A stretch of 64,000 nt of DNA from Jannaschia donghaensis (lineage in GTDB: Bacteria > Pseudomonadota > Alphaproteobacteria > Rhodobacterales > Rhodobacteraceae). The translations under genes and the position numbers were made by a program. Below the pieces are notes generated by a model. The model was not told the DNA's origin and ran no database searches. It saw only the letters and a program-made list of their open reading frames with translations. The stretch is from NCBI RefSeq assembly GCF_001403795.1, contig NZ_CXSU01000011.1, positions 746,247 to 810,246 on the forward strand. The letters are read 5' to 3'. Within the stretch, counting starts at the first letter, position 1, and each line of letters begins with the position of its first letter. Positions 32,783-37,556 of the stretch are shown in pieces.

Positions 32783-33999
32783 GCGTCGATCTCCGAACCG
32801 GTGCGCGCCATCAGGACGAGGGCGAGGGTTTTCAGGGCGAGCGGTACACCTGCATAGAGGAATGTAAGAGACCAAAGCGCCGACGTCGTGTTTTGTTCCC
32901 CCGGAACGAAGCCCGCCGCGTCCAGCACCGGGAACAGCGCGATTGCCGCGATGGCCAACGTGGCCTTGTTGACGAACGACCAGAGGCCGAAGCCATCGGC
33001 GGCGGTCGGCGCGATGATTTCCATTCGGCGGGCGAACAGAGCGGGCAGCAACGACAGATCCGCCCCCACGGCGGCCCCGGATGCAACGCAGACGGCCGCG
33101 AACAGCCATATGTCGCCCGTGCCCAGGGGCAGGGCGAAGGCGAATGTCACGATGGCCAGACCCATCGCAATCAGCAGCGTGCGACGCGACCCCAACCGGG
33201 TGGCCAGCTTGCCCCAGACCGGCACCGATGCGGCGGCCGATAGAAAGAACAGCAACAGCAACGGTCCCTCTTGTCCGGGCGCGCCCAGCCGGTCGGCGAC
33301 GTAGAACAGGAACAGCGTGGACGTGACCGCGACGGGCGTCGCGTTGACCAGCGCGATCAGCAGAAGACGGCGCGCGGGGGCATCCGACAGAACGATGCGC
33401 AGACCGTTGCCCTGTGGCGCGGCCCCGCGCGGCGACCATTCGGGCCACATTGCGATCAGGGCGAGACCCGTCGCCGCCGCGAAAGCGATCGCGTACCAGG
33501 TGAAGGCGGCACCGGTAGCGGCCAAAACGGACGGCAGGGCGGCGGCGATGCAGACCCCGATCAGCGATCCCGTCTCGCGCCAGCCGGCCAGACGAACGTG
33601 ACCGTTCGGCGTGGCAGCGGCCTTGGCGACGCCTTGGGCATAGAAACAGATCGTCAGAAACGAAAACGCCGAAAACAGCGCGGCGAGCGACAGGGCGAAC
33701 CACCACAGTGGCGGCAACGCGGGCGGCACCGCAAAAAGCATCAGCATCGCAGCCGCCATCACCGTGGCGGCGGCCAGGACCATCGGACCGCGACGGCGGC
33801 GCGTCACCTCGGCCAGACGGCCCAGCAACGGATCCTGCACGAGGTCGATCAGACGCAGGGCGAACAACGCGAATGACAGCTGTGCCAGCGTCACGCCATA
33901 GGTATCGACGTAGAATTTGGGTGCGTGGATGTAGATCGGCAGTCCCGCCGCCGCCAGAACGGCGGCGAACCCCGCATAGCGCGGCAGGCCCGCGGTCAC
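32779..33999 (-). CDS. MFS transporter, GPH (sugar/cation symporter)-like
   Basis: About 406 residues with roughly twelve hydrophobic segments. The segment LRLIDLVQDPLLGRLAEVTRRRRGP is the MelB/GPH-type loop 2-3 motif (D-x(3)-DP-x(2)-G). A GTG at 33999 overlapping the DUF1365 stop (GTGA) is chosen as the start; the in-frame extension to 34098 would overlap the previous gene by about 100 bases and adds a charged, non-membrane stretch. In R. sphaeroides a GPH carrier holds the same position in the rpoE-linked cluster. The substrate is unknown. Confidence 0.88.
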   Translation of the reverse strand: MTAGLPRYAGFAAVLAAAGLPIYIHAPKFYVDTYGVTLAQLSFALFALRLIDLVQDPLLGRLAEVTRRRRGPMVLAAATVMAAAMLMLFAVPPALPPLWWFALSLAALFSAFSFLTICFYAQGVAKAAATPNGHVRLAGWRETGSLIGVCIAAALPSVLAATGAAFTWYAIAFAAATGLALIAMWPEWSPRGAAPQGNGLRIVLSDAPARRLLLIALVNATPVAVTSTLFLFYVADRLGAPGQEGPLLLLFFLSAAASVPVWGKLATRLGSRRTLLIAMGLAIVTFAFALPLGTGDIWLFAAVCVASGAAVGADLSLLPALFARRMEIIAPTAADGFGLWSFVNKATLAIAAIALFPVLDAAGFVPGEQNTTSALWSLTFLYAGVPLALKTLALVLMARTGSEIDA

Positions 34000-34769
34000 G
34001 TTCCGCGCCCCGAGACTTCGCTGTCGGGCGGCGTGGGCCGGCCCCGGAAAGTCGCGCCCTTCCACCACAGTTTTAGCGCCTGCCAATGGATCAGACACAG
34101 CACCCGGCGTGTGCCGAACGGCCGACGCAGGGCCGCCCCGATAAGGGCCCGGTTCGTCAACGGTCGGCGCGGCCCGGTCAGCGTGGCGACCAGCGTACCA
34201 TTGCCCTGTCGGTAGCCGATCCGAATAGAGATACGGTTCGGGCGGATGTCGAAGCGGAAATCGTAGTCCCCCTCAACCGGCTGAAAGGGTGATACATGCA
34301 TCAGCTTGGCGGCACGTAGCTGCGTGTTGGCGTCGATCGGCGACAGATCGTCCGCGTGACACAGATAGGAATGCCGGTCGCCGTAGGTGTTCGTCACCTC
34401 GGCGATCACGGCGACCAGATCGTCGTGTCTATCGTGGATCAACCAGAAACTGACCGGATTGAAGACATGCCCCAGAACACGCGGTTGGGCGAGCAGCAGG
34501 ATGCGGCCCGGATCGAAGGTCGGAAGGGCTTCGGCCAAAACGTCGCCAACCCAGTCCATGCCCCGCCCCTGATCGGGGGGGCCGCCGTGATCCCGGTCGC
34601 GGACCTGCGCGAACCCGTGCGCGTTTCGCGAAAACAGCTTCGGCAGGGGGCCGTCGTCGGTCGGGTCGAGCAGGACATAGTCCACGCCATAGCTGAACCG
34701 ATTGGTCACGCCTTCCGCCGTCCGCCCGTGAAACGTGGTCCCGGGAATATGATCGAGTATGCGGGTCAC
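33996..34769 (-). CDS. DUF1365-family protein
   Basis: The 257-residue protein has the family features FSYGVDYVLLDPTD near the N-terminus, RVLGHVFNPVSFWLIHD, and MHVSPFQPVEGDYDFRF. DUF1365 genes usually stand beside an FAD-dependent oxidoreductase and often a cyclopropane-fatty-acid-synthase-type methyltransferase; the first is present here, the second is not. The start is the GTG at 34769, overlapping the upstream stop (GTGA). No ATG lies before the conserved part in this frame except far upstream inside the previous gene. Probably part of membrane lipid modification under stress. Confidence 0.85.
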   Translation of the reverse strand: MTRILDHIPGTTFHGRTAEGVTNRFSYGVDYVLLDPTDDGPLPKLFSRNAHGFAQVRDRDHGGPPDQGRGMDWVGDVLAEALPTFDPGRILLLAQPRVLGHVFNPVSFWLIHDRHDDLVAVIAEVTNTYGDRHSYLCHADDLSPIDANTQLRAAKLMHVSPFQPVEGDYDFRFDIRPNRISIRIGYRQGNGTLVATLTGPRRPLTNRALIGAALRRPFGTRRVLCLIHWQALKLWWKGATFRGRPTPPDSEVSGRGT

Positions 34770-36061
34770 TCCGCCGCGACGGCCATCGCACGCCGCCGGT
34801 CCATCCCGGCCACCACGTCGAGCGCGGAGGCGAAGCCGTCCTCGTGAAAGCCATTCTTCATCCACGCCCCGCAGAACCAGGTGTTGTCAGTCCCGTTGCG
34901 CGCGCGGATGCCGTCGACCGCAGCCATCATGGCAAGGTCATAGACCGGATGGCGGAAAACCTTGCGGTCATAGATCAGCTCCTCCCGAATGGGTTGCTGC
35001 GGGTTGAGCGTCGAGAAGATCGGGTCGTCCATCGGGATCGGCTGCAAGCGGTTCATCCAATAGGTCAGCCCGATGCGATCGGGGCGCGCCGCCTGTTCGG
35101 CATAGTTCCACGACGCCCACGTCTTGCGTAGCTTGGGCATGACGGACGCATCGGCGTGCAGGACTGCATCGTTGTCCTGATACCGGACCTTGGAGAGCAG
35201 CGCCGTTTCCTGCGCCGTCGCATCCGACAAAAGACACAGCGACACGTCGGAATGAGTGGCAAGGACGACATCGTCGAACGCCTCCCATTCCGCGCCCATC
35301 AGGCGCACGTCTGCGCCACCGTCGGTGCGGCGTATGCCTTGCACAGGGGCCCCTAGGCGAATGTCGACGCCGGCCCCTTCCAGATGGGTCTGCAGGCGGT
35401 TGACGTATTCGATCGACCCGCCCTGAACCGTGAACCACTCATGCTGACCGGTGTGCGACAGCAACGCGTGATTGCGGAAGAAGCGGATCATGGCCTGCGC
35501 CGGGAAATCCATGACGTCCTGACTGGGCGTCGACCAGATCGCACCCGAGATCGGGCCGATGTACCAGTCCCGAAATGCCTGTCCCACACCCAGATCGTCA
35601 AGGAAATCGCGCAGCGGCAGATCCGGGTCGTTGGCTGCATCGGCGGCGCGGGCGTTGAAACGGAAGATATCGCGCACCATCCGCAGGAACTTGGGCGACA
35701 GAAGGTTGCGGCGCTGGGCGAACATCGTGTCGGCGGTCTGCAGCGAATATTCCACCCGACCCCCGTCGATGGACGCGGCGAAAGACATGTCGCTGTCGGC
35801 GATGGGCACGTCCAGGTCGGTGAACATGGCCAGCAAATTGGGGTAATTCACCTTGTTGAAGACGATAAACCCGGTGTCCACGGGTTGATCGCCGCGCTTG
35901 CCGGCCGTTACCGTGCGCGCATGACCACCCAACCGCGGCTCCGCTTCGATCAACACGACCTGGTTTCCGGGGGCGAGGGCCTGGGCGGCGGCCATGCCGC
36001 TGATGCCGCCGCCGATGACGGCGATGCGGCGGGGCGGGGTCGAATTCGTCGAAAGGGGCAA
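34766..36061 (-). CDS. FAD-dependent (amine oxidase-type) oxidoreductase
   Basis: The 431-residue protein starts with a dinucleotide-binding motif (IAVIGGGISGMAAAQAL) and the following acidic residue (VVLIEAEPRLGGHARTV). The C-terminal part is the flavin amine oxidase domain typical of the FAD-DUF1365-CFA gene sets. The TTG at 36061 is proposed as start: it lies 15 residues before the Rossmann motif, has AGGA about 10 bases upstream and fits the -10 element at 36095-36099. The frame is open to 36505 but that stretch crosses the promoter region. It is the first gene of the minus-strand operon. Confidence 0.85.
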   Translation of the reverse strand: MPLSTNSTPPRRIAVIGGGISGMAAAQALAPGNQVVLIEAEPRLGGHARTVTAGKRGDQPVDTGFIVFNKVNYPNLLAMFTDLDVPIADSDMSFAASIDGGRVEYSLQTADTMFAQRRNLLSPKFLRMVRDIFRFNARAADAANDPDLPLRDFLDDLGVGQAFRDWYIGPISGAIWSTPSQDVMDFPAQAMIRFFRNHALLSHTGQHEWFTVQGGSIEYVNRLQTHLEGAGVDIRLGAPVQGIRRTDGGADVRLMGAEWEAFDDVVLATHSDVSLCLLSDATAQETALLSKVRYQDNDAVLHADASVMPKLRKTWASWNYAEQAARPDRIGLTYWMNRLQPIPMDDPIFSTLNPQQPIREELIYDRKVFRHPVYDLAMMAAVDGIRARNGTDNTWFCGAWMKNGFHEDGFASALDVVAGMDRRRAMAVAAE

Positions 36062-36083: not shown

Positions 36084-36104
36084 GCACGTATGAGGGATAC
36101 GTGC
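36084..36104. promoter_or_regulatory. Perfect palindrome over the FAD-operon promoter
   Basis: GCACGTAT (36084-36091), a 5-base spacer and ATACGTGC (36097-36104) form an exact 8+8 inverted repeat. It covers the proposed -10 element of the minus-strand promoter (36095-36099) and the expected start site. Spacing and symmetry look like the operator of a dimeric transcription factor. No regulator can be named. Confidence 0.55.
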
Positions 36105-36123
36105 CGTTCACGTCCGAGGATCA
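36095..36123 (-). promoter_or_regulatory. Sigma-E (RpoE)-type promoter of the FAD/DUF1365/MFS/DUF3833/SDR operon
   Basis: On the minus strand TGATCC (36123-36118) is followed after 18 bases by TATCC (36099-36095). The R. sphaeroides sigma-E consensus, as I recall it, is TGATCC about 18 bases before a TA-containing -10 box (TAAGA). A start near 36088 would leave a leader of about 27 bases to the TTG at 36061. Spacing is identical to the divergent rpoE promoter. Confidence 0.65.
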
Positions 36124-36165: not shown

Positions 36166-36194
36166 TGATCCAAGCAACCGCAGGCGGCGTAAAT
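36166..36194 (+). promoter_or_regulatory. Sigma-E (RpoE)-type autoregulatory promoter of rpoE-chrR
   Basis: TGATCC (36166-36171), an 18-base spacer and TAAAT (36190-36194) lie upstream of rpoE. This matches the known autoregulated rpoE promoter arrangement of R. sphaeroides. The divergent operon carries the same -35 box and spacer on the other strand. Confidence 0.7.
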
Positions 36195-36253: not shown

Positions 36254-36910
36254 ATGAGCAGATCCGTGTCTCTCCTTGCCACACGGCCGGAGCGTTCCAT
36301 GACGATTGCAGCGTCTGAAACCGCACATCACTGGGCGACCTTGCTGCTTGCGGTCGGGTCGGACCGCAATACCGATGCGTTCGAAGCGCTGTTTCGGCAT
36401 TTCGCGCCGCGCGTAAAGTCGTATCTGATGCGGACGGGCCTGACGCCCGCCATGGCCGAGGATTGCATGCAGGATGTGATGGTGACCCTGTGGCGCAAGG
36501 CGCATCTGTACGATCCAGCACGGGCCGGGGTTTCGACCTGGTTGTTCACCATCGCGCGCAACCGCAAGATCGACCTGATCCGCCGGTCGACACGGCCCGA
36601 GCCGGAGGATTTGTCCTGGGGGCCGGAGGCCGCGCCCGATCAGGCCGACGCGCTGGCCCTGTCACAGGAGGCGGATCGCCTGGCCGAGGCCATCGCTGAT
36701 CTGCCAGCAGCGCAGCGCGACATGGTCCGACGTGCCTATTTCGCCGATGCGACGCATGCCGAAATCGCCGCCGCCACGGGCCTGCCGCTGGGGACGATCA
36801 AATCGCGCATCCGCTTGGCCATCGACCGGTTGCGCCATGCGATGCAATCCGACGGATCCGGTGCGCCCTGCCCCGCATCCGCCTCGGACACGAACGACCG
36901 AAGGACCTGA
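36254..36910 (+). CDS. rpoE: ECF RNA polymerase sigma factor RpoE (singlet-oxygen type)
   Basis: The product has about 218 residues from the ATG at 36254 (AAAGGA 6 bases upstream) or 203 from the ATG at 36299; the latter matches usual family length more closely. Region 2 (about residues 45-110) contains FEALFRHFAPRVKSYLMRTGL and DCMQDVMVTLWRKAHLYDP, then FTIARNRKIDLIRR. Region 4 (about 145-195) has LPAAQRDMVRRAYFADATHAEIAAATGLPLGTIKSRIRLAIDRLR. ChrR follows one base after the stop. In R. sphaeroides this pair controls the response to singlet oxygen; the linked minus-strand operon is part of that regulon. Confidence 0.93.
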   Translation: MSRSVSLLATRPERSMTIAASETAHHWATLLLAVGSDRNTDAFEALFRHFAPRVKSYLMRTGLTPAMAEDCMQDVMVTLWRKAHLYDPARAGVSTWLFTIARNRKIDLIRRSTRPEPEDLSWGPEAAPDQADALALSQEADRLAEAIADLPAAQRDMVRRAYFADATHAEIAAATGLPLGTIKSRIRLAIDRLRHAMQSDGSGAPCPASASDTNDRRT

Positions 36911-36911
36911 A

Positions 36912-37556
36912 ATGACGATCCGACATCCGATACCCGACGACCTGCTGATGGGATATGCGGCCGGTCACCTTCCGCCATCCCACGATCTTATGGTTGCGAC
37001 CGCCGTCTCTCTGGATGACGACGCGCGGGCGCGCCTTGCCGGATTCGAAGCCGTAGGAGGTGCCCTTCTGGACGAAGCGGAGGCGGTGTCGTTGGACGAC
37101 GGATCGCTGGATGCGGTGATGGCGCGGCTGAAGGGGGGGACCCCGGATCCGGTTTCACCGGCCGGGACGGTCGACGACGTGCTGCCGGCACCCCTGCGCG
37201 ATGCGGTGGGCGGCGGCCTGAGCGACGTGCGATGGAAATCCGCCGGCTTGGGCGTCCGGCAGGCCGTTCTGGGGGCGGACGAAGGGGGGACCGTCCGGCT
37301 GCTGTCGATTCCGGCCGGGCAGGCGATGCCCGATCACGGGCATCACGGCGCGGAATTCACGCTGGTGGTTCAGGGCGCGTTCATCGATGCCGGTCGCCGG
37401 TTCGGGCGCGGTGACATGGAAGTGGCCGATGCGCAGACCGAACATCAACCGGTCGCCGCCGCCGGGGAGGATTGCATCTGTCTGGTGGTGACCGATGCGC
37501 CGCTGAAATTCTCGGGCCTTTTACCGCGGATCGCCCAACGGTTCCTGAAAATCTGA
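36912..37556 (+). CDS. chrR: ChrR-type anti-sigma factor with degenerate zinc site in the anti-sigma domain
   Basis: The 214-residue protein has the two-domain layout of ChrR: an N-terminal anti-sigma domain (about 1-85; MTIRHPIPDDLLMGYAAGHL) and a C-terminal cupin (about 110-200). In R. sphaeroides ChrR the anti-sigma domain binds zinc through H6, H31, C35 and C38 (from memory). Here these positions are P6, A31, D35 and A38 (segment VATAVSLDDDARARL), so all four ligands are gone, although H5 remains. The cupin keeps its probable metal ligands (DHGHHGAEFTLVVQGAF and TEHQP). It is encoded one base after rpoE. It may bind sigma-E without zinc, or be weakened. Confidence 0.9.
   Translation: MTIRHPIPDDLLMGYAAGHLPPSHDLMVATAVSLDDDARARLAGFEAVGGALLDEAEAVSLDDGSLDAVMARLKGGTPDPVSPAGTVDDVLPAPLRDAVGGGLSDVRWKSAGLGVRQAVLGADEGGTVRLLSIPAGQAMPDHGHHGAEFTLVVQGAFIDAGRRFGRGDMEVADAQTEHQPVAAAGEDCICLVVTDAPLKFSGLLPRIAQRFLKI

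What the first reader, a model, noticed from the sequence alone, without database searches (positions are those of the whole stretch)
36912..37070. ChrR whose anti-sigma domain has lost all four zinc ligands
The translated N-terminus reads VATAVSLDDDARARL at residues 28-42. In the R. sphaeroides protein, as I recall, the matching segment is VATHLSLCDECRA, and zinc is held by H6, H31, C35 and C38. Here positions 6, 31, 35 and 38 are Pro, Ala, Asp and Ala with no gap in the alignment, while the cupin domain keeps its His/Glu cluster. Zinc is thought to be needed for ChrR to bind sigma-E. Either this ChrR inhibits sigma-E by a zinc-free surface, or sigma-E is partly released, or the N-terminal domain senses something else. 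The sigma factor and its promoters look intact.
Basis: partly seen in the sequence, partly recalled or inferred. Interest (0 to 1): 0.82.

Follow-up and report, generated by a model that had tools for sequence, protein, structure and literature searches.

The report
Anti-sigma factor without its zinc
A light-stress regulator thought to need a zinc atom has lost that zinc site in one group of mostly light-using bacteria while staying under strong natural selection, so these bacteria offer a direct test of whether the zinc is really the oxygen sensor.

Summary
ChrR at 36912-37556 aligns without a gap over its first 80 residues to the solved R. sphaeroides ChrR; zinc ligands H6, H31, C35, C38 read P, A, D, A. 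The cupin ligands are kept. It is no sequencing error: all 12 ChrR-bearing genomes of 20 in the genus have D35/A38. Related genera (Thalassobacter, Roseicyclus, Rhodophyticola) lack one or both cysteines. Careful trees without the ligand region put them in one clade; a larger quick tree does not. About five further lineages lost ligands separately. Of 248 genera typed, 17 are affected.

The zinc-free domain is not decaying: its dN/dS (0.025, 0.049 to the two nearest relatives) is below that of the cupin domain and SigE. AlphaFold2 gives the solved fold with residue 35 just before helix 3; C35 is replaced by S, N or D, except R in one remote row. SigE and ChrR are kept or lost together in the genus.

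Best reading: a zinc-free ChrR still holds SigE, and release runs through the cupin domain. Zinc-free anti-sigma domains are known elsewhere (RseA, RskA). New variant of a known kind; binding and sensing untested.

The parts
36912..37556 (+). chrR: ChrR-family anti-sigma factor, 214 aa
   Evidence: ORF; TIGR02451 190.6 bits against a cut-off of 124.5; 2z2s_B/2q1z_B E 1e-60/9.7e-57
36912..37136 (+). anti-sigma domain (ASD, residues 1-75, four predicted helices 9-17, 22-34, 36-54, 65-75) without zinc ligands (P6, A31, D35, A38)
   Evidence: gapless alignment; AlphaFold2 model, block pLDDT 91-97 over residues 1-50
37002..37025 (+). codons of residues 31-38 (AVSLDDDA), the lost H-X3-C-X2-C zinc knuckle; D35 lies just before helix 3
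37221..37493 (+). cupin-like domain with its metal ligands H142, H144, E148, H178 kept
   Evidence: Pfam Cupin_7 residues 104-194, E 2e-15; ligand columns
36299..36910 (+). rpoE/sigE: ECF11-type sigma factor (start codon uncertain; the ORF is open from 36224); one base lies between its stop and the chrR start
   Evidence: 2q1z_A E 7.3e-68
36166..36192 (+). SigE-type promoter TGATCC-N17-GTAA upstream of rpoE (autoregulation inferred)
   Evidence: motif as listed in PMC5507510 (passages)
36098..36123 (-). SigE-type promoter TGATCC-N16-CGTA for the divergent operon
34766..36052 (-). flavin amine-oxidase-like gene, by position and family like RSP_1091 (start approximate; assignment by position)
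   Evidence: Pfam Amino_oxidase E 4.8e-20; divergent upstream in 42 of 45 named loci
33996..34865 (-). DUF1365 gene, as RSP_1090 (assignment by position, recalled)
   Evidence: Pfam DUF1365 E 7.6e-67

Best explanation
This is an orthologous, working ChrR whose anti-sigma domain has gone metal-free. The zinc that normally pins helices 1, 2 and 3 is replaced by protein packing: an N-cap residue (Asp, in relatives Ser or Asn) takes the place of C35 at the start of helix 3, Ala sits at 38 inside helix 3, and other residues fill positions 31 and 6. The bundle still wedges into SigE and holds it off RNA polymerase. Release on singlet oxygen then cannot depend on oxidation of a zinc-thiolate in this domain; it runs through the kept metal-binding cupin domain and ChrR turnover. 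Shown here: ligand loss, its spread on the tree, purifying selection, co-occurrence with SigE, kept promoter and cupin ligands, predicted fold. Inferred: absence of zinc, SigE binding, N-cap stabilisation, cupin-only sensing.
For: Gapless alignment. Ligand states of 286 distinct ChrRs from 304 loci: 233 HHCC, 53 not; cupin ligands HHEH in 285 of 286. A sigma gene ends at most 147 bases before chrR in 304 of 304 loci (302 within -10 to 60; one sigma gene, L290, is cut by the stretch). Selection: window against its two nearest relatives, dN/dS of ASD residues 2-53 is 0.025 and 0.049, of the cupin domain 0.107 and 0.095, of SigE 0.086 and 0.166; group pN/pS of the ASD is 0.255 in the Jannaschia type (54 pairs), 0.221 in the other members of the zinc-less clade (492 pairs) and 0.344 in HHCC (7744 pairs). 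SigE and ChrR both matched in the same 12, and neither in the same 8, of 20 genus genomes. Model: mean pLDDT 89.2, pTM 0.81; to 2q1z chain D TM 0.92 by target length, 0.79 by query length, rmsd 2.1 A; a ligand-bearing relative gives the same helices. Residue 35 is non-helical between helices 22-34 and 36-54; in the 284 rows its substitutes are S (26), D (13) and N (6). Of Cys and His in ASD positions 1-80 only H5 is invariant in 12 Jannaschia-type rows, as it also is in HHCC (136 of 136). Passages of PMC6852236 and PMC5358783: the RseA fold is stabilised without zinc, and RsiW stays bound to SigW without zinc.
Against: In R. sphaeroides zinc binding is reported as required for ChrR to inhibit SigE (PMC6852236 passages). 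Selection and co-occurrence show that the domain is used, not that it binds SigE. AlphaFold2 does not model zinc and also folds the ligand-bearing relative, so the model cannot show metal independence. dS is near saturation, so ratios are rough. The remote L057 has Arg at 35, outside the N-cap set. One Jannaschia-type ChrR (L012) has lost the cupin ligands too, which fits poorly with obligatory cupin sensing in that species.
Confidence: 0.7

Rival explanations
1. The domain has become a weak inhibitor: SigE is partly free all the time, giving these phototrophs a constitutive singlet-oxygen defence that the cupin domain only modulates.
For: Zinc is needed for inhibition in R. sphaeroides (PMC6852236 passages); 44 of 51 non-HHCC rows come from genomes with pufM; L012 keeps SigE although both metal sites are gone.
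Against: Between the window and its two nearest relatives the zinc-free ASD evolves more slowly than the cupin domain and SigE, and in the clade its mean column entropy is below that of equal-sized HHCC draws (0.74 against 0.90); a weakened domain would be expected to relax.
Confidence: 0.17
2. Zinc or another metal is still bound at a shifted or mixed site (for example H5, D35 and residues of the cupin domain or of SigE).
For: H5 is invariant and D35 could ligate a metal; PMC6432622 (passages) speculates on mixed coordination between the two domains in oxidised ChrR.
Against: No new Cys or His is conserved in the ASD of the 12 Jannaschia-type rows. H5 is equally invariant in zinc-bearing ChrRs (136 of 136), where PMC6432622 says that only the second His of the HH pair binds zinc.
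Confidence: 0.07
3. The partner or signal has changed: this ChrR no longer acts on the adjacent SigE, or its N-terminal domain senses something else.
For: None found beyond the ligand loss itself.
Against: A sigma gene lies just upstream of chrR in 304 of 304 loci, and SigE and ChrR are present or absent together in 20 of 20 genus genomes; promoter and divergent operon are kept.
Confidence: 0.04

Closest known systems
Rhodobacter sphaeroides ChrR (2q1z, 2z2s), TIGR02451
   Same: Full-length similarity, two-domain layout, predicted fold, cupin ligands, adjacent SigE, promoter motif, divergent amine-oxidase/DUF1365 genes
   Different: None of the four ASD zinc ligands is present
Zinc-free class I anti-sigma domains: E. 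coli RseA, M. tuberculosis RskA
   Same: Same kind of helical anti-sigma domain without a zinc-binding motif (PMC6852236 and PMC7406223 passages)
   Different: Not ChrR orthologues, and no cupin domain is mentioned for them in the passages seen; the ChrR case is loss of zinc ligands within one orthologous group
B. subtilis RsiW
   Same: Binds its sigma factor without zinc (PMC5358783 passages)
   Different: RsiW keeps its CHCC ligands; proteolysis is its regulator
Mixed zinc and non-zinc anti-sigma groups AS27, AS19-1, AS33-1/AS33-2
   Same: Zinc and non-zinc members within or between close groups (PMC7406223 passages)
   Different: ChrR's own group AS11 is not named as mixed in the passages seen

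Membership tests
ChrR family anti-sigma factor (TIGR02451) | whole-protein profile score over the curated cut-off | tested here: met
   190.6 bits against 124.5; the narrower NF051881 equivalog is not reached (144.6 against 300)
ChrR family anti-sigma factor (TIGR02451) | cupin-like domain with H141, H143, E147, H177 | tested here: met
   window H142, H144, E148, H178
ChrR family anti-sigma factor (TIGR02451) | adjacent ECF11 sigma factor | tested here: met
   2q1z_A E 7.3e-68; one base between sigma stop and chrR start
ChrR family anti-sigma factor (TIGR02451) | inhibits SigE and releases it on singlet oxygen | not testable with these tools
   needs binding and reporter assays
ZAS (zinc-containing anti-sigma) subfamily | H/C-X24/25-H-X3-C-X2-C motif | tested here: not met
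   P6, A31, D35, A38; Pfam at E <= 1 lists only cupin families for the protein
ZAS (zinc-containing anti-sigma) subfamily | binds zinc in the ASD | not testable with these tools
   needs metal analysis
Class I anti-sigma domain (ASD fold) | four-helix bundle as in 2q1z | tested here: met
   predicted helices 9-17, 22-34, 36-54, 65-75; whole model against 2q1z chain D TM 0.92 by target length, 2.1 A; a prediction, not an experiment

The most novel reading that the evidence does not exclude
In a large clade of mostly phototrophic Rhodobacteraceae, singlet-oxygen control of SigE works with no zinc-thiolate in the anti-sigma domain. The ASD zinc of ChrR is then a structural part that can be dispensed with, not the singlet-oxygen sensor. 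It was lost repeatedly, perhaps because aerobic bacteriochlorophyll makers gain from an anti-sigma domain that singlet oxygen cannot destroy, with the lost site refilled by similar helix-capping residues.
Probability: 0.35. Interest if true: 0.75.

Novelty: new variant of a known kind. Interest (0 to 1): 0.55.

Why it matters
Whether the zinc-thiolate of ChrR's anti-sigma domain is the singlet-oxygen sensor is described in print as under debate (PMC6432622 passages), and the zinc's role in the response as unknown (PMC6852236 passages). A natural series (HHCC; QHCA; HHSS, HHSA and HHNA; PADA), several of its members in named strains, removes the thiols without any engineered mutation. If such strains still repress SigE in the dark and release it under singlet oxygen, the zinc site cannot be an obligatory sensor. 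It would also show, within one orthologous group, how a metal-stabilised domain becomes metal-free.

Tried and rejected
Phototrophy as the driver: 44 of 51 non-HHCC rows and 93 of 139 HHCC rows come from genomes with pufM (Fisher p 0.010), but independent pairs on the tree show no signal (3 pairs on starred branches, 7 at most), so I do not claim an association.

One origin or two: a quick tree of 190 rows joins Jannaschia, Thalassobacter and the Roseicyclus group (44 rows, SH-aLRT 99). A quick tree of 284 rows puts the 13 Jannaschia/Thalassobacter rows with five HHCC rows, apart from the other 31; the branches on the path between the two have SH-aLRT 47-88. A careful tree of 80 thinned rows puts the 38 rows kept of the group on one side of a branch (100/92, all of 200 bootstrap trees), and so does a careful tree of 81 rows that holds all five of those HHCC rows (100/98). 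In both, the bootstrap had not settled (correlations 0.987 and 0.942). For these two trees I thinned the group from 43 to 38 rows, left out L012, L052, L057, L118, L240 and L270, and took 38 (then 39) of the HHCC rows, the 38 from the 145 nearer than 0.48 to the window. One origin is favoured, not settled.

Number of losses: the 190-row tree needs 7 changes of HHCC state, but its well-supported branches alone force only 3.

Compensating changes: D25 is fixed in the clade (43 of 43, against 13 of 136 HHCC) but is in none of 6 separate losers, so it may be shared history. V32 is in 43 of 43 clade rows and 6 of 6 separate losers against 61 of 136 HHCC, but the later-found L270 has I32. Not pressed. 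Replacement zinc ligands were looked for and not found.

Strict promoter regex upstream of sigE: 5 of 12 Jannaschia type, 23 of 39 other non-HHCC, 55 of 139 HHCC, 0.3-0.8% in shuffles: promoters kept alike, with many misses by the strict pattern.

Full report
What is there. The window lies in a 3.48 Mb genome (G000). The closest named ChrR relatives are Jannaschia (L013 J. faecimaris and L014 J. marina, both 80% identical). SigE (36299-36910, start uncertain) and ChrR (36912-37556) are adjacent. ChrR scores 190.6 bits with TIGR02451 (cut-off 124.5), and Pfam lists only cupin families for it. phmmer to the solved R. sphaeroides ChrR has no gap in the first 80 residues and puts P6, A31, D35 and A38 at the four zinc ligands H6, H31, C35, C38 (ligand numbers from PMC6852236, passages). 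The cupin ligands are kept. I found no second ChrR in the own genome: one match with the protein at E <= 10 and one with TIGR02451.

How far it spreads. Of 20 genus genomes, 12 have a ChrR match at E <= 1e-5, and all 12 have D35/A38, with P (11) or E (1) at 6 and A (11) or T (1) at 31. The same 12 have SigE by a P0002 search at E <= 1e-20 (best identity 64-100%), and the other 8 have neither; TIGR02451 finds in one of those 8 (G014) only a weak cupin-region match with a stop inside. In a sample of 394 family genomes (393 genera), 325 match the window's ChrR and 328 match a more distant ChrR, L053. Most of the first 205 were chosen by likeness to a zinc-less query, so zinc-less ones are over-represented among rows. 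By genus the count is fairer but still a part: of 248 genera typed (327 match), 230 have HHCC only, 17 have a non-HHCC ChrR, and one has an HHCC copy and a YHCC copy. In rows, 233 of 286 are HHCC and 53 are not. The commonest non-HHCC states are HHSA (15), PADA (10, one with a broken cupin site), HHNA (5), QHCA (5) and HHSS (3).

The tree. Trees were built on SigE plus ChrR from residue 46 on, so the ligands could not drive them. The Jannaschia type is one group in the 190-row tree (12 rows, SH-aLRT 99). Whether it shares one zinc loss with the Roseicyclus group depends on the tree: yes in the 190-row quick tree (44 rows, 99) and in two careful trees of 80 and 81 rows (100/92 and 100/98, 200 of 200 bootstrap trees each, bootstrap not settled); no in the 284-row quick tree, where the branches between them have SH-aLRT 47-88. 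Within the group one or both cysteines are gone everywhere (Thalassobacter HHNA, Roseicyclus mostly HHSA; L030 and L038 have Cys at 35, kept or regained), and H31 is lost only in Jannaschia. This reads as stepwise loss, although counts of changes cannot by themselves give direction. Outside it, L052 (Actibacterium, QHCA), L072 (QHSA), L161 (HHSS), L125 with L117 and L118 (QHCA) and L270 (HQDA) sit among HHCC relatives, so about five further losses are needed on the best trees; well-supported branches of the 190-row tree alone force only 3 changes in all. L270 reached D35/A38 separately from Jannaschia. L057 is a remote long branch (R at 35) and was left out of the later trees.

The domain is maintained. 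Between the window and its two nearest relatives, dN/dS of ASD residues 2-53 is 0.025 and 0.049, below the cupin domain (0.107, 0.095) and SigE (0.086, 0.166). Over groups, pN/pS of the ASD is 0.255 (Jannaschia type, 11 rows, L012 dropped, 54 pairs), 0.221 (other members of the zinc-less clade, 32 rows, 492 pairs) and 0.344 (HHCC, 136 rows, 7744 pairs); pairs with SigE distance outside 0.03-0.35 were dropped. Synonymous sites are near saturation, so these are rough; in the other zinc-less members the ASD ratio (0.221) is a little above that of SigE (0.203). Mean column entropy of residues 3-53 is 0.74 in 43 clade rows against 0.90 in equal-sized HHCC draws, but the clade is also younger than the HHCC set as a whole. 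A domain losing its job would be expected to drift.

Structure. AlphaFold2 on 44 aligned ChrRs gives mean pLDDT 89.2 and pTM 0.81, with helices 9-17, 22-34, 36-54 and 65-75. Foldseek's best six PDB hits are the ChrR chains of 2q1z and 2z2s (best: TM 0.92 by target length, 0.79 by query length, 2.1 A). The control, ligand-bearing L045, gives the same helices shifted by its one extra residue. Residue 35 is the single non-helical residue before helix 3, the N-cap position. In the 284-row set the residues at 35 are C 239, S 26, D 13 and N 6, and at 38 they are C 233, A 45, S 4 and V 2. That S, N and D favour helix N-caps and Ala favours helices is recalled knowledge. This suggests how the bundle stands without zinc, but the program knows nothing of zinc, so it is not proof.

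Setting. TGATCC-N16-CGTA sites point both ways from the region upstream of rpoE (36098-36123 minus, 36166-36191 plus; 2 found, 0.20 expected, 3 of 100 shuffles as high). The motif matches the site listed for the P. syringae homologue in PMC5507510 (passages). Upstream run an amine-oxidase-like gene, DUF1365, an MFS gene and DUF3833. PMC7074977 (passages) says that the RSP_1090/91 genes beside rpoE-chrR are conserved in many Rhodobacteraceae, naming Jannaschia rubra, whose ChrR is here PADA (L019). The amine-oxidase gene is divergent upstream in 7 of 8 named Jannaschia-type loci, 31 of 32 other non-HHCC loci and 4 of 5 HHCC loci. The own genome has pufM.

How it most likely works. Zinc normally pins three helices of the ASD; here packing and an N-cap do. 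RseA and RskA show that such domains can work without a zinc motif, and RsiW keeps its grip on SigW after zinc is gone (PMC6852236, PMC7406223, PMC5358783; passages). In R. sphaeroides the cupin domain is needed for release, and E147 and H177 are needed (PMC6852236); both are kept here. So release most likely starts in the cupin domain and ends in ChrR turnover. Against this stands the report that R. sphaeroides ChrR needs zinc to inhibit; the two agree only if these lineages have compensated. In what I saw, no assay of any of these zinc-less proteins is reported.

In print. My searches (open-licence PMC papers only) listed no paper that reports ChrR without zinc ligands in its title or abstract start, and the passages that I read in seven papers that discuss ChrR or its kin do not mention it. 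I saw listings and passages, no whole text, and the original zinc, structure and mutation papers (ids from the reference lists printed) are not held, so a remark there or in a supplement would have escaped me. Mixed zinc and non-zinc anti-sigma groups are already described (PMC7406223), which is why I call this a new variant of a known kind.

Noticed in passing
L012 (G005, same genus), ChrR 1501-2145: A ChrR that lacks the ASD zinc ligands and also the cupin metal site (VERH in place of HHEH, with a two-residue gap there), beside a SigE gene in a pufM-bearing genome; the ASD is more conserved than the cupin domain.
   Followed up: partly
L307 (G000:C11:372113-372139): A perfect SigE-type promoter pattern 49 bases before a gene whose product looks like a secreted fasciclin-domain protein (recognised by eye, not scanned); PMC10949492 (passages) mentions fasciclin under RpoE-ChrR control in Azospirillum.
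   Followed up: partly
L235 and L240 (both G119): One genome with two ChrRs, each with a sigma gene upstream; L240 has Tyr at the first zinc ligand (YHCC).
   Followed up: no
L270 (G222): A ChrR outside the zinc-less clade that reached D35/A38 separately and has Gln at 31 (HQDA).
   Followed up: partly
8 of 20 genus genomes (G003, G006, G011, G014-G017, G019): No SigE and no ChrR match, although 3 of the 8 (G006, G014, G019) have pufM.
   Followed up: no
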